DNA from: Oscillospiraceae bacterium
GTDB lineage: Bacteria > Bacillota > Clostridia > Oscillospirales > Acutalibacteraceae
Assembly (NCBI GenBank): GCA_022779945.1
Contig: JALEYA010000062.1
Span: 1-32,403 of the forward strand
Length of the DNA stretch: 32,403 nucleotides
Direction: 5' to 3'
Shown: one piece after another, positions 5,916 through 29,995 of the stretch
Layout: each line of letters begins with the position of its first letter
Numbering within the stretch: the stretch's first letter is position 1
Program-made: the position numbers and the translations under genes
The notes under the pieces: model-generated
What the model was told of the DNA's origin: nothing
Database searches by the model: none
What the model saw: the letters and a program-made list of their open reading frames with translations, nothing else

Positions 5916-6018
5916 GGGCAGCCACACGGGGCTACCAAAAACAAGGCACCATTTAATTTCAGGCAAAAGAAAATAGGCGTACAACCTCTTCAATAAATAG
6001 ACTGATTAATTTTAGTTC

Positions 6019-6487
6019 GGTCGCATGGCGACACCAATGCCGGGGTGCACGGTGCTTGATTGAAAACAAACAGCCCGAGCCGTGAGTCGAGCGGTAAATT
6101 TTTGTTTGTCGGTCGCAAGGCGACACCAATGCCGGGGTAGAGAACAATGCGGAATTCGTAATGCGTAATGCGTAATTGTGGTCGCGGGCTTACCCGGTGC
6201 TGGTGGGAAGCTGTCCCCGCAGAACGGATTTTTTTGTGTCGGGAAGTCTATCGATTATAAGAGGCGGCAAGATGGCAGCTTTGGGGCAAAATTCATCTGT
6301 CAGCCGGGCGGCGGCTCCAATCCCGGGGCGCACGGTGCTTAACGAAAGCCGAGTGCCCGAGCCGTAAACTGAGCGACCAATTTTAGTTTGTCGGTCGCAT
6401 GGCGACACCACTGCCGGGTCAGGCAGTGCTAAATTGAAAATCGAGTGCCCGAGCCGTGAGCAGGTCGATAAATTTTAGTTTGTCGGG
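6019..6487 (+). repeat. Copies of a ~92-bp repeat (full 6019-6110; partial 6111-~6140; partial ~6303-6392; full 6393-6487)
   Basis: Recurring 'GGTCGCATGGCGACACCAATGCCGGGG...GTGC...GCCCGAGCCGTGAG...AATTTTAGTTTGTC' visible at each coordinate. Confidence 0.85.
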
Positions 6488-7311
6488 ATAAAAGCCGTCC
6501 CCTTTGGGGAAGGTGGCGGCGAAGCCGTCGGAAGGGGTTCTGACCTCCACCGCGCTGTTCATCTTATCAATCGATCAGTCGGTTCTCTTCTGCTATAACT
6601 TCTTCTATATCTCTACCTTTGCGCTAATGCCGAGCGGGCACATACCAATTAGCAGAAACTGCCTACACGGGAGAAAAAGCCCGACCAAGCAGAAACTATG
6701 GCGGCAGTGATGCCGTCCAACGGCCTTTCAGACGAAAAAGAAAGTATGCAAAGAAGTTCTTTAGGTGCGCATTTTCTCAGCTGAGTTTTTTCTCACCCTT
6801 TAGGGGCGGAGAAAAAACTGCGGGTCGAAAATGCTATTGGGACTCTGTTCTATCGCCCCATATCCTTTGGAGTCAGGCATAGTGGGATTCAATTGAAAGG
6901 TACTAAGTTCTCTAACGGCTTTTTCTGTGTCGGTCAGCCACAGCCCCTCAATACCTGACGTGCCGTTGGTTTAATTTGGCTCTTTTTGTGACTCTGCTTT
7001 CAGTTAGCAGAAAGCTTTAAATATACAGGAAAAAACAGGAGAGAACAAACTATCCGAAACATAACCACCGAGACCACACTTAGTGTTTTTCCTCCGCGAA
7101 AAGCGTTCTTTGCTTACTTTCTGACGCGCTTGTCAGGCCGTTAGACGGCATCACTGCCGCCGTGATTTCTGCTATGTTGGACTTTTTCTCCCGTGTGGGT
7201 AGTTTCTGCTAATTGGTCAGTGCCCGCGCGGCATTAGCGCAAAGGTAAAAGAATAGAAGAAGTCATAGCATAAGAGAACAGACTAACATTTACCCCGATA
7301 AACTAAAATTT
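6470..7311. repeat. Nested inverted-repeat element, non-coding, ~0.85 kb
   Basis: Outer IR AAATTTTAGTTTGTCGGG (6470-6487) / CCCCGATAAACTAAAATTT (7293-7311); long arms ~6573-6755 versus reverse complement of ~7103-7289 align with high identity, e.g. 'ACCTTTGCGCTAATGCCG' and 'CCAATTAGCAGAAACT' on both. Confidence 0.8.
6769..6834. repeat. Internal hairpin within the inverted-repeat element
   Basis: GCATTTTC...GAGTTTTTTCTC-acccttta-ggggcg-GAGAAAAAACTG...GAAAATGC. Confidence 0.7.
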
Positions 7312-10755: not shown

Positions 10756-10784
10756 TTGACAATTTGAAGTAAATAAGATAAACT
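10756..10784 (+). promoter_or_regulatory. Putative sigma-A-type promoter for the small-ORF pair
   Basis: TTGACA (10756-10761), 17-bp spacer, TAAACT (10779-10784); small hairpin AGAGTA-tgaag-TACTCT follows in the 5' UTR. Confidence 0.65.
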
Positions 10785-10853
10785 TATATCATCTTAGAGT
10801 ATGAAGTACTCTCAAACGTTGTAATTTAAGTTTAACGAAAGGAGTTTAACACG

Positions 10854-11006
10854 ATGAAATTCGGTACTATCGAAGAACTTTGGTATGAATGGCTTCATTT
10901 CCTTGACAGAGTTATGGGCTGGCTCAACTATGTAATCGGCAACGCAGAAGATCCATACAGCTATGATGGTTTCTGGGAGAATGTCTTTGGTCAGCCTCAA
11001 AAATAA
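10854..11006 (+). CDS. Small aromatic-rich protein, 50 aa (absent from ORF track)
   Basis: MKFGTIEELWYEWLHFLDRVMGWLNYVIGNAEDPYSYDGFWENVFGQPQK; RBS gaaaggag upstream of ATG. Confidence 0.75.
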   Translation: MKFGTIEELWYEWLHFLDRVMGWLNYVIGNAEDPYSYDGFWENVFGQPQK

Positions 11007-11030
11007 GTGTTTTGAAAGGAGAAACTCAAT

Positions 11031-11192
11031 ATGCTTTACGGTTCACCTGATTTTGATGTTGCAATGAAGTTTTATGAGCTCTGGAGAGGTATTGCTACTG
11101 CTTTCTTCCAGTTCATTAAACATGTTTGCATTCTTTTCGGCGTTGATGTTGAGGAAGGCAAAACTCCTTCCGAAACAACAAATGCTCAGTGA
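11031..11192 (+). CDS. Small aromatic-rich protein, 53 aa (absent from ORF track)
   Basis: MLYGSPDFDVAMKFYELWRGIATAFFQFIKHVCILFGVDVEEGKTPSETTNAQ; RBS gaaaggag upstream of ATG; 24 nt after the previous stop. Confidence 0.75.
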   Translation: MLYGSPDFDVAMKFYELWRGIATAFFQFIKHVCILFGVDVEEGKTPSETTNAQ

Positions 11193-11210
11193 TGTTTTGA
11201 TTCTCAACTG

Positions 11211-11241
11211 CCCTGTGCTGACGGCACAGGGTCATTTTTTG
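11211..11241 (+). terminator. Rho-independent terminator after the small-ORF pair
   Basis: CCCTGTGC-tgacg-GCACAGGG-tcATTTTTTG. Confidence 0.85.
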
Positions 11242-15590: not shown

Positions 15591-16115
15591 CTATCTGATG
15601 AAAATACTGAAAAGACGCTTAAAAAACGCAATGATCTTGTTGATGAAGGATTTCAGACCGGATCTGCCGTTGCTGTCGTCAGCCTTTATATTTGTCTGCT
15701 GCGAAAGCCATGAGATGACACCCTCTTCCGGATTCTCAAAGCTGATTGTTTTGCCGTTTCCGTCAACGGTGGTTGCGTATTGATAAGGCGTAACATGATC
15801 GTTCATATGCATATCATAGGTGACGGTTTCCCATGTGTAGTGCTCCTGCTGGTAACTTCCCTGCTTTTCGCCGTTGGCAAGCACAACCTGAGAAAGACTC
15901 GTCAGTCTGACGCCGTCTTTGCGGTGGGACGATTTTTTGATCGCGTTGAAAACAGGCTTGATGGAACTTGTCTTAGCACCTGCCCAGAAATCGATATCGC
16001 AGTTTATCATCCACACGGAAGTGTCACAGAGCTTTGAAACCTCTGCCGCTGTCGGAGGTGTGATGGCGGAACAAGGGATACCGGCGGCAAAGAAATCAGG
16101 ATAAGCAAGAAGCAT
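15591..16115 (-). pseudogene. C-terminal fragment of a secreted alpha/beta hydrolase (5'-truncated) with amphipathic C-terminal tail
   Basis: Begins mid-domain at 'MLLAYPDFFAAGIPCSAI', preceded in frame by 'SGGADMT*S' (TAG); no signal peptide or nucleophile elbow upstream; C-term 'GLKSFINKIIAFFKRLFSIFIR'. Confidence 0.7.
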
Positions 16116-23561: not shown

Positions 23562-25154
23562 ATGAAAACGCTTAAAAAGTTGACAGCTGTTTTGCTTGCC
23601 GTTGTAATGACCCTGGCGATGGCTTCCGTTTCATTTGCGGTCGCTGCCGAATCGGACATTCCGACACTCATTATTTACGGAAGAAAAAACCAGCCGTTTT
23701 ACAAGGCGGACGGAACTCCGGTTGCCGATACCGCAACACCCTGCGGTATGTCGAGAGAAGAATACATCAAGAAATGGATAAAGCCCGTTCTCAAAGAGCT
23801 TGCCGTCGGTGTTGCAACCGACAATTACGATAAGTATGTCGATACGCTGATTGAATGTGCTCGGCCGATTTACGAGGAAGAGGTTCTTCCTGCAAGCGGT
23901 GAGGCCGACAACGGTACGCACATCAAATGGGATTATCAGAAAAATATGTCGACCGCTGTACACGGCGGAAAGAGATGCTATGTTTTCTATTATGACTGGA
24001 GACTGTCGCCTGTTGATATCGCCGATCAGCTTGACGTTTATATTGAGCGGATTCTTGCCGCCAACGGAGCGGATAAAATCAACATCACGGCGCGCTGTCT
24101 GGCTTCCAACATGGCGATGGCTTACGTCGCAAAAAGCCATGAGGGTGCATACGGTCATCCGTTCCGGGTCGCCAATCTCGCTTTCGATACGCCGGCTCTT
24201 GCAGGCTATATCACCGTCGGTGCCCTGATGTCCGGCTCGATTCACTTTGACGCTGATGTGATTGACCGCTTTGTAACAAGCTATCTGAACAACAACGACC
24301 TTTTCGAAGATGAGTCCATGGAATTGCTTGCTTCGACGCTTGTCACTTTTATCAATCACGCAAAAGTACTCGGTCTGACTGCCGGTATGGTCAACAAGAT
24401 TTATAAAAAGGTCAGCGACAAGCTGATCTCCGGCATTGCCCTTGTCAGCTACGGTCGATACCCGTCCTATTGGAGCATGATCAGCGACGAGTATTACGAT
24501 AAGGCTGTGGCACAGATCTTTAACACGCCTGAGCTTGCCGAAGAATATGCGGGTCTTATCGCCAAGGCAAACGAATATCACGAACTGCTCAGTGATACCA
24601 ACGAAGAAACCGGCCGCCCGAAATATGCGGATCTTCTTCTTGAACTGAAAGAGGAGGGCGTAAACACAGCGGTGTTCGGAAAATACGGTGTTGCTACCGT
24701 GCCGATGTTTGATGGCTGTGAAATCACCGGAGACACAAGAGGAACCGTTACAGAGACCACGCTCGGTGCAACCGCCACAACGGTTTACAAAAAATTCTCG
24801 TCTGCCTATATGACGAAAGCCGAAGCAAACGGCACGATCCAGTATATCGCCGCCGACAGAACGGTGGATACGTCAACTTGTCTTTTCCCTGATTCAACAT
24901 GGGTTATGAAGAATGTCGCACACGATGTGTTCCTCGATAGCACCTATGCTTTGATCAATGACTTCTTTGCTTCGGACGGAAGCCTTACCGTTGAAGAATC
25001 CTCACGGGCACGCTTCACCGATTACAATAACGGTGACCTCAAGCCTGTTGAAACCGCCGACAATGGTACATGGACAAAGAATCCGCTCGTACTTCTGCTG
25101 AAGCTTCTGACAGCACTTTTCAAGGTGTTTGTCAATATGCTTAATAAACAATAA
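23562..25154 (+). CDS. Secreted alpha/beta-hydrolase (lipase-like) protein with amphipathic C-terminal tail
   Basis: Signal peptide 'MKTLKKLTAVLLAVVMTLAMASVSFAVAA'; 'CYVFYYDWRLSPVDIADQLDVYIERIL', 'INITARCLASNMAMAYVA' at elbow position; C-term 'NPLVLLLKLLTALFKVFVNMLNKQ'. Confidence 0.75.
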   Translation: MKTLKKLTAVLLAVVMTLAMASVSFAVAAESDIPTLIIYGRKNQPFYKADGTPVADTATPCGMSREEYIKKWIKPVLKELAVGVATDNYDKYVDTLIECARPIYEEEVLPASGEADNGTHIKWDYQKNMSTAVHGGKRCYVFYYDWRLSPVDIADQLDVYIERILAANGADKINITARCLASNMAMAYVAKSHEGAYGHPFRVANLAFDTPALAGYITVGALMSGSIHFDADVIDRFVTSYLNNNDLFEDESMELLASTLVTFINHAKVLGLTAGMVNKIYKKVSDKLISGIALVSYGRYPSYWSMISDEYYDKAVAQIFNTPELAEEYAGLIAKANEYHELLSDTNEETGRPKYADLLLELKEEGVNTAVFGKYGVATVPMFDGCEITGDTRGTVTETTLGATATTVYKKFSSAYMTKAEANGTIQYIAADRTVDTSTCLFPDSTWVMKNVAHDVFLDSTYALINDFFASDGSLTVEESSRARFTDYNNGDLKPVETADNGTWTKNPLVLLLKLLTALFKVFVNMLNKQ

Positions 25155-28983: not shown

Positions 28984-29246
28984 ACAAAAGCATGATTCAT
29001 GGCTCGGGCTGTCAGGTAAAGCATGGCACGAGTTACCCCGGAATTGGAATCGCCACGCGATCAGTCGAACACAAAAGCATGATTCATGGCTCGGGCTGTT
29101 AGGTGAAAGTATGGCACGAGTTACCCCGGGATTGGAATCGCCACTCGATCAGTCGAACACAAAAGCATGATTCATGGCTCGGGCTGTCAGGTGAAAGTAT
29201 GGCACGAGTTACCCCGGGATTGGAATCGCCACGCGATCAGTCGAAC
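28984..29246 (-). repeat. Three tandem ~87-88-bp repeats, same family as 6019-6487 in inverse orientation
   Basis: 'ACAAAAGCATGATTCATGGCTCGGGCTGTCAGGT...' begins at 28984, 29071 and 29159. Confidence 0.92.
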
Positions 29247-29995
29247 AGATCAAAGCTTTCTACCCATGAAATCAGCTTGTCGTGTTCCTCGCCGCTGACT
29301 TCGACGGAATAGGAAGCGGCAACGATCGGGATCCACTTTTTGATAAATGATTTCTCTGTTCCTGTTTTTTCACAGTAGATGTCTACATATTTCTTCGCGG
29401 TTTCGATTTCTCCGTCAAGACAGAATAAAAGGCAGGTCATGGCGGCGTCTCCGGCGGCGTTGCCCTGGGTTGCCTTTGACCAGTCAAGAATATAGGCCTT
29501 GCCGTCTTTGTCGAGAATGATGTTCGACGGGTTGAAGTCGCCGTGACAGATCTGCTGACTTTTCGGCATGGCGCTTAGTTTTGAATGCAGGCTGTACCTC
29601 ACTGTTGCGGAAAGCTCGGCTTCGTTGATCTGACGGTTGAGCTTGTCGCGAAGTCTTGTAAGAAAACGCGAACTTTTGCTCTGAAGCTCAATCTGGAGGT
29701 CAATGAACATATTGAAGTATTCGTCAAAGCGGTCGGGATTGTTTTTCATTACACGGTCGAGCGTTTCGCCGTCGATATATTCCGATTCGGTTACCGGCTT
29801 TCCGTCAAGAACGTAAAACGACAGAATGGCCGGAACATTCATACCCGCTTCTTCGACGATGGCCTGATTGAGTGCCTCGTTGAGAATAGCTGCCTTGGAG
29901 CTTGTGGGGGAAAAGATCTTGATGGAACGGTCACCGTCGCGGTAAACCGTTTTGTTGTCTCTTTCGGCAATTACTTTTTCAAAATTCATTTTCAT
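29237..29995 (-). CDS. APH-fold small-molecule/protein kinase-like protein
   Basis: 'QQICHGDFNPSNIILDKDGKAYILDWSKATQGNAAGDAAMTCLLF'. Confidence 0.85.
   Translation of the reverse strand: MKMNFEKVIAERDNKTVYRDGDRSIKIFSPTSSKAAILNEALNQAIVEEAGMNVPAILSFYVLDGKPVTESEYIDGETLDRVMKNNPDRFDEYFNMFIDLQIELQSKSSRFLTRLRDKLNRQINEAELSATVRYSLHSKLSAMPKSQQICHGDFNPSNIILDKDGKAYILDWSKATQGNAAGDAAMTCLLFCLDGEIETAKKYVDIYCEKTGTEKSFIKKWIPIVAASYSVEVSGEEHDKLISWVESFDLFD

What the first reader, a model, noticed from the sequence alone, without database searches (positions are those of the whole stretch)
10756..11241. Unannotated transcription unit encoding two ~50-aa aromatic-rich small proteins
A near-consensus promoter (TTGACA-17-TAAACT), a 5' UTR hairpin, two ATG ORFs each with a GAAAGGAG RBS, and a strong terminator define a self-contained unit that the ORF track omits. 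Both peptides share an 'ELW' segment followed by an aromatic amphipathic stretch ending in G (EELWYEWLHFLDRVMGWLNYVIG / YELWRGIATAFFQFIKHVCILFG) and a polar, partly acidic tail, suggesting related or interacting partners. Hypotheses: membrane-associated regulators, a leaderless two-peptide bacteriocin, or a toxin/partner pair.
Basis: partly seen in the sequence, partly recalled or inferred. Interest (0 to 1): 0.7.

Follow-up and report, generated by a model that had tools for sequence, protein, structure and literature searches.

The report
Paired helical micropeptides conserved across genus
A genus of uncultured Clostridia carries a real, conserved two-gene unit for two tiny, related, membrane-seeking helical proteins that belong to no described family; it is one of several such units in these genomes, their strong promoters suggest they are made in quantity, and what they do is unknown.

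Summary
The unit is real. Promoter, 5' hairpin, two ORFs with GAAAGGAG sites and a terminator are at the stated places. Independent profile searches of 34 genomes of the genus found ORF1 in 21, with ORF2 20-40 nt downstream in 19. Promoter, RBSs and terminator recur in essentially all, the 5' hairpin in most, although flanking genes change. Both ORFs are under strong purifying selection (G000 versus G003: dN/dS about 0.02/0.54 and 0.04/0.52). Searches of about 400 family and 400 order genomes and of the family, structure, phage and plasmid collections found no convincing relative.

Both peptides lack a signal peptide and are predicted as single amphipathic helices. The two families align in one register, so they are probably paralogues. 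They are acidic, and no genome of the genus has a bPH_2 protein, so a leaderless bacteriocin is unlikely. Other loci of the genus carry further small units for leaderless helical peptides, several with perfect promoters and beside small secreted proteins with amphipathic C-termini. Best reading: abundant surface-active helices that co-assemble, phenol-soluble-modulin-like in design. Export and function are not shown.

The parts
10756..10784 (+). Promoter TTGACA-17-TAAACT
   Evidence: a promoter of 10-11 of 12 consensus bases lies upstream of ORF1 in all 21 genomes, with 17-nt spacing in 20 (for G289 and G318 the promoter called gives a UTR of only 30 or 25 nt)
10796..10812 (+). Hairpin near the 5' end of the transcript (AGAGTA-TGAAG-TACTCT)
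   Evidence: present at the same place in most relatives with different stem sequences; mean longest stem 6.7 bp in 19 UTRs against 4.8 (sd 0.28) in shuffled sets. G306 and G311 are weak; the G289 and G318 UTRs were not scored
10837..10844 (+). Ribosome-binding site GAAAGGAG of ORF1
   Evidence: same or similar site in the relatives
10854..11006 (+). ORF1, 50 aa acidic Trp-rich amphipathic helix peptide with acidic Pro/Tyr tail
11014..11021 (+). Ribosome-binding site GAAAGGAG of ORF2
11031..11192 (+). ORF2, 53 aa amphipathic helix peptide, probable paralogue of ORF1 (29-54 aa in relatives)
11210..11241 (+). Intrinsic terminator (10-bp stem, T-rich tail), separating the unit from mfd
   Evidence: a terminator-like hairpin follows the last ORF in the relatives (read by eye)

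Best explanation
The locus is a conserved two-gene operon for two related, leaderless, amphipathic alpha-helical micropeptides, probably made in large amounts. SHOWN (by sequence): gene reality, conserved pairing and order, purifying selection, lack of a signal peptide, high hydrophobic moment, recurrent strong promoter, mostly with a 5' hairpin, and probable common origin of the two peptides. INFERRED: the two helices lie on membrane or other interfaces and co-assemble, the conserved D-R pair and the invariant Trp (ORF1) and Tyr (ORF2) making the contacts; they act as bulk structural or surface-active peptides, in design like the beta-type phenol-soluble modulins and LspU of staphylococci, possibly at the cell surface together with secreted proteins that end in amphipathic helices. 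The export step is the least supported.
For: ORF1 and ORF2 profiles, searched independently, land next to each other in 19 genomes. dN/dS about 0.04 (ORF1) and 0.08 (ORF2) between G000 and G003. Maximum hydrophobic moment averages 0.65 for both, against 0.40 (ORF1) and 0.36 (ORF2) in shuffles. AlphaFold2: helix 3-27 (ORF1) and 6-35 (ORF2), pLDDT about 90 over the core. ORF1-ORF2 profile alignment score 21.6, against 8.0 (sd 1.9) for column shuffles and 11.9 reversed. W23 of ORF1 is invariant (21/21), D18 18/21, R19 17/21; Y15 of ORF2 19/19. Expression signs: near-consensus promoters and 5' hairpins; codon adaptation above the null mean in 8 of 8 tests, though clearly so in only two or three. 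Similar small units at other loci: perfect 12/12 promoters in front of leaderless helical peptides of 31-51 aa beside secreted proteins with amphipathic tails, and a row of seven such ORFs in G325. Precedent: LspU, a PSM-like small helix that traps lipases at the cell surface (PMC12607899).
Against: No transporter or secreted partner is consistently adjacent to this unit; recurring neighbours are mfd, a cytidylate-kinase-like gene or gltX. The conserved D-R pair and the WPPxDYP-type tail (12 of 21) suggest a specific partner more than a generic surfactant. No match to any family. No transcript, ribosome or protein data. Likeness of ORF2 to secreted tails is only suggestive (20.1, shuffles up to 21.2). 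Codon bias is not significant for most ORFs.
Confidence: 0.45

Rival explanations
1. Intracellular membrane-peripheral pair: the two helices stay in the cell, lie on the inner face of the membrane and scaffold or regulate a specific protein, as SpoVM does in sporulating Bacillus.
For: No signal peptide and no exporter recognised nearby; specific conserved residues; generally one copy of the pair per genome and strong purifying selection.
Against: Many divergent small units of similar design in the genus, some in tandem and beside secreted proteins, look more like bulk or secreted peptides than regulators.
Confidence: 0.33
2. Two-peptide leaderless bacteriocin: the two peptides are exported and permeabilise competing cells.
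For: Two leaderless Trp-containing helical peptides encoded together.
Against: Median net charge -6 (ORF1) and -2 (ORF2), none positive, whereas known leaderless bacteriocins are cationic (PMC6131525); no bPH_2 protein in any of 34 genomes; no recurrent adjacent transporter or immunity gene; present in most of the genus instead of sporadically.
Confidence: 0.06
3. Toxin-antitoxin or other toxin/partner pair.
For: Two small genes in one operon.
Against: No PADLOC, Pfam or NCBIfam match; strong promoter and terminator; paralogous peptides; found in 21 of 34 genomes, many of them incomplete drafts.
Confidence: 0.04
4. Dual-function regulatory RNA whose short ORFs are secondary (RNAIII-like), or a structured leader.
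For: Recurrent 5' hairpin and terminator on a short transcript.
Against: Amino acids are conserved while synonymous sites diverge strongly; no Rfam match above threshold; UTR sequence varies.
Confidence: 0.05
5. Chance open reading frames in an intergenic region.
For: Short; below usual annotation limits.
Confidence: 0.01

Closest known systems
Phenol-soluble modulins of staphylococci (beta-type PSMs) and LspU
   Same: Small secreted amphipathic helices without a leader; the beta type is 43-45 aa (PMC12607899) and is encoded as related peptides in tandem (tandem layout and anionic character from memory).
   Different: No sequence family match; Trp-rich with a conserved D-R pair and an acidic Pro/Tyr tail in ORF1; no Pmt-like exporter identified; host is an uncultured Clostridia lineage; function unknown.
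Leaderless two-peptide bacteriocins (enterocin L50 / DD14 type)
   Same: Two leaderless peptides encoded together.
   Different: Acidic instead of cationic; no bPH_2 protein in the genus; no recognised transporter cluster.
SpoVM-type membrane-binding small proteins
   Same: Small in-plane amphipathic helix without signal peptide.
   Different: Paired genes, acidic, no sporulation context shown, not homologous by any search made.

Membership tests
Phenol-soluble modulins | Small leaderless peptide forming an amphipathic helix | tested here: met
   Sequence, hydrophobic moment and predicted helix only:
Phenol-soluble modulins | Match to a known PSM family model | tested here: not met
   No Pfam or NCBIfam match for either query peptide; A5 scanned on Pfam and A6 on NCBIfam without a significant match
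Phenol-soluble modulins | Export by a Pmt-type ABC transporter | not tested
   Generic ABC families cannot single out Pmt; no recurrent transporter among the flanking gene clusters
Phenol-soluble modulins | Surfactant, lytic or aggregating activity | not testable with these tools
   needs peptide chemistry
Leaderless bacteriocins | Cationic peptides | tested here: not met
   net charge -9 to -1 for ORF1, -6 to 0 for ORF2; definition from PMC6131525
Leaderless bacteriocins | bPH_2-domain (PH) transport/immunity proteins, as reported for enterocin DD14 | tested here: not met
   0 of 34 genomes; 4 of 14 control genomes positive. Not universal for the class
Toxin-antitoxin systems | Homology to known toxin or antitoxin families | tested here: not met
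Toxin-antitoxin systems | Growth inhibition relieved by the partner | not testable with these tools
   needs expression in a laboratory strain
SpoVM-type proteins | Curvature-dependent membrane binding in sporulation | not testable with these tools
   needs localisation experiments

The most novel reading that the evidence does not exclude
The genus runs a multi-locus system of leaderless amphipathic micropeptides, many made from their own consensus promoter with a 5' stabilising hairpin, that is exported and co-assembles outside the cell with signal-peptide proteins ending in matching amphipathic helices, forming a surface layer or enzyme-trapping matrix; the pair in this window is its most widely conserved two-component part found here.
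Probability: 0.2. Interest if true: 0.85.

Novelty: new variant of a known kind. Interest (0 to 1): 0.6.

Why it matters
Genes of this size are skipped by annotation, yet here promoter strength suggests some of them may be among the more highly expressed genes of an uncultured lineage. If the peptides are exported and surface-active, leaderless amphipathic peptides would be a more general bacterial tool than the staphylococcal cases suggest; if intracellular, they are a new paired membrane-binding module. Either is directly testable with synthetic peptides and with existing metatranscriptomes or metaproteomes.

Tried and rejected
Single-sequence search of genome contigs found only the sister genome; profiles were needed. 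Out-of-genus hits of the ORF1 profile were chance frames and large unrelated proteins; those of the ORF2 profile were membrane permease-like proteins and chance frames. The PHROG holin hit of ORF2 (E 0.029) and the Rfam nuoG hit (17.5 bits against a cut-off of 33) are below significance. MAFFT did not align the 5' hairpins structurally, so no formal covariation count was made. Rotations of the ORF2 profile are not a proper null because they keep most of the local alignment (up to 20.8). Ribosomal protein L2 is missing from the window's own draft genome, so codon bias was measured in four relatives.

Full report
OBSERVATION. A promoter or terminator match in a 2-kb stretch is weak evidence by itself (6 promoter-like sites against 3.2 expected, 4 terminator-like against 1.8), so the case rests on comparison.

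CONSERVATION. A single-sequence search gave the sister genome G003 (96% identity) and weak same-genus hits. Two of these (G138, G224) lie at another chromosomal place, yet show the same order: promoter, ORF1, ORF2, terminator. Profiles built from these seeds, searched separately over the 34 genomes of the genus, found ORF1 in 21; ORF2 follows 20-40 nt downstream in 19 of them. G289 and G310 have ORF1 without a recognised ORF2. Thirteen genomes lack the pair or were too incomplete to show it. Outside the genus, about 400 family and 400 order genomes gave no convincing ORF1 relative and 398 family genomes no convincing ORF2 relative. P0001 had no match in phages or plasmids, and neither alignment a significant PDB match.

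SELECTION. Between G000 and G003 ORF1 has 10 synonymous and 3 nonsynonymous differences (dN 0.02, dS 0.54), ORF2 12 and 5 (dN 0.04, dS 0.52). Most other close pairs also show dN well below dS, with a few ORF2 pairs nearer to it (G301-G300: dN 0.30, dS 0.39).

TRANSCRIPT DESIGN. A promoter of 10-11 of 12 consensus bases was found before ORF1 in all 21 genomes (17-nt spacing in 20). In 19 the UTR is 49-76 nt; in G289 and G318 the called UTR is 25-30 nt and was not scored for a hairpin. In most of the 19 a hairpin sits some 8-14 nt after the assumed start, with stems of different sequence (AGAGTA/TACTCT, ATGGGGC/GCCCTGT, GGGGA/TCCCC and others). The mean longest stem is 6.7 bp against 4.8 (sd 0.28) in dinucleotide shuffles. 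Individual values are mostly P 0.05-0.4, G306 and G311 are weak, and the genomes are related, so the set-level figure overstates independence. Terminator-like hairpins follow the last ORF (read by eye). Codon adaptation to ribosomal-protein usage exceeded the null mean for all eight ORFs tested, but was clearly significant only for ORF1 of G224 and ORF2 of G003, borderline for ORF1 of G003. High expression is therefore an inference.

THE PEPTIDES. ORF1 (39-57 aa, net charge -9 to -1) and ORF2 (29-54 aa, -6 to 0) have high hydrophobic moments (mean 0.65 each; shuffles 0.40 and 0.36) and are predicted as single main helices. ORF1 conserves W23 (21/21), D18 (18/21), R19 (17/21), F16 (19/21) and P34 (20/21), with a WPPxDYP-type tail in 12; ORF2 conserves Y15 (19/19) and F28 (17/19). 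Profile-profile alignment places both in one register; its score of 21.6 exceeds all 150 column shuffles (8.0, sd 1.9, maximum 16.6) and the reversed profile (11.9). Common origin is likely, though two helices of one kind could also converge.

SURROUNDINGS. Flanks differ: mfd in five genomes (G000, G003, G289, G321, G311), a cytidylate-kinase-like gene (PF13189) near about ten, gltX in others. The unit has therefore moved or its neighbours have, and it does not depend on them.

A WIDER CLASS. The window's own genome has, on contig C29, a single-ORF unit with a perfect 12/12 promoter, a 10-bp 5' hairpin and a 51-aa leaderless peptide (MSAIEIKTFEDVWKMIWEFLYKIIAWLSGK...), with a terminator. G003 has its close homologue (96%), and weaker matches led to comparable 28-42-aa helical peptides in about ten other genomes, several with 12/12 promoters and 5' hairpins. 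The scan lists also some spurious ORFs, and several genomes with a weak match (G319, G315, G326, and less clearly G311) showed no convincing unit. Of 23 perfect promoters in 461 kb of fetched sequence (0.11 expected by composition), about a dozen precede such peptides; the sequence was chosen around them, so this is not a genome-wide rate. In G325 seven small ORFs lie in a row, and a similar row was seen in G302.

SECRETED NEIGHBOURS OF THE SECOND LOCUS. In nine genomes (G000, G003, G320, G303, G313, G317, G316, G309, G319) the stretch fetched around the second-locus match holds a Cys-rich secreted protein with 14-18 Cys and a conserved amphipathic C-terminus; in eight of them a micropeptide unit was recognised beside it, in G319 not. 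Four of the nine (G000, G003, G313, G316) also showed a second small secreted protein upstream. The other second-locus stretches scanned (G321, G300, G311, G301) did not show the Cys-rich protein, but they are only about 2-3 kb long, so absence there is not established. The signal-peptide test was a simple rule of mine, not a trained predictor. Similarity of ORF2 to the secreted tail is suggestive only. Larger proteins of the genome also end in amphipathic stretches.

MECHANISM. The shown facts fit paired helices acting at an interface. I place PSM-like bulk peptides slightly ahead of an intracellular membrane-peripheral pair because of the number and tandem layout of the related units and their secreted neighbours; but those neighbours belong to other loci, not to this one, and export is untested. 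A leaderless bacteriocin is disfavoured by charge and absence of bPH_2 (PMC6131525). LspU offers a precedent for a small PSM-like helix that traps secreted lipases at the surface (PMC12607899).

TAXONOMY AND LITERATURE. Literature searches found no description of this pair, within an open-access library only and by words, not by sequence.

Noticed in passing
G000 contig C29, L125 3014-3169 (-): Second leaderless micropeptide unit in the same genome: perfect TTGACA-17-TATAAT promoter, 10-bp 5' hairpin, 51-aa amphipathic peptide, terminator; weaker relatives in about ten other genomes of the genus.
   Followed up: partly
L125 3362-3817 (-); also L157, L158, L159, L160, L162, L163, L164, L168: Cys-rich secreted protein (14-18 Cys, 151-198 aa) with conserved amphipathic C-terminus at the second locus in nine genomes (G000, G003, G320, G303, G313, G317, G316, G309, G319); not seen in the short stretches of G321, G300, G311, G301.
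   Followed up: partly
L126 6818-8820 (G325); L070 (G302): Row of seven small leaderless amphipathic ORFs of 51-56 aa, several with their own 5' hairpin and terminator, in G325; a similar row in G302.
   Followed up: partly
window 15591-16115 (-) and 23562-25154 (+): Larger proteins ending in amphipathic stretches (FINKIIAFFKRLFSIFIR; LLKLLTALFKVFVNMLNKQ), the second with a signal-peptide-like start; no Pfam match.
   Followed up: no
window 29018-29281: Three tandem 88-nt repeats between genes.
   Followed up: no
window 6017-6510 and 6577-7284: Dispersed 75-96-nt direct repeats and a 179-nt imperfect inverted repeat (84% complementary, 350 nt apart) in a gene-poor stretch.
   Followed up: no
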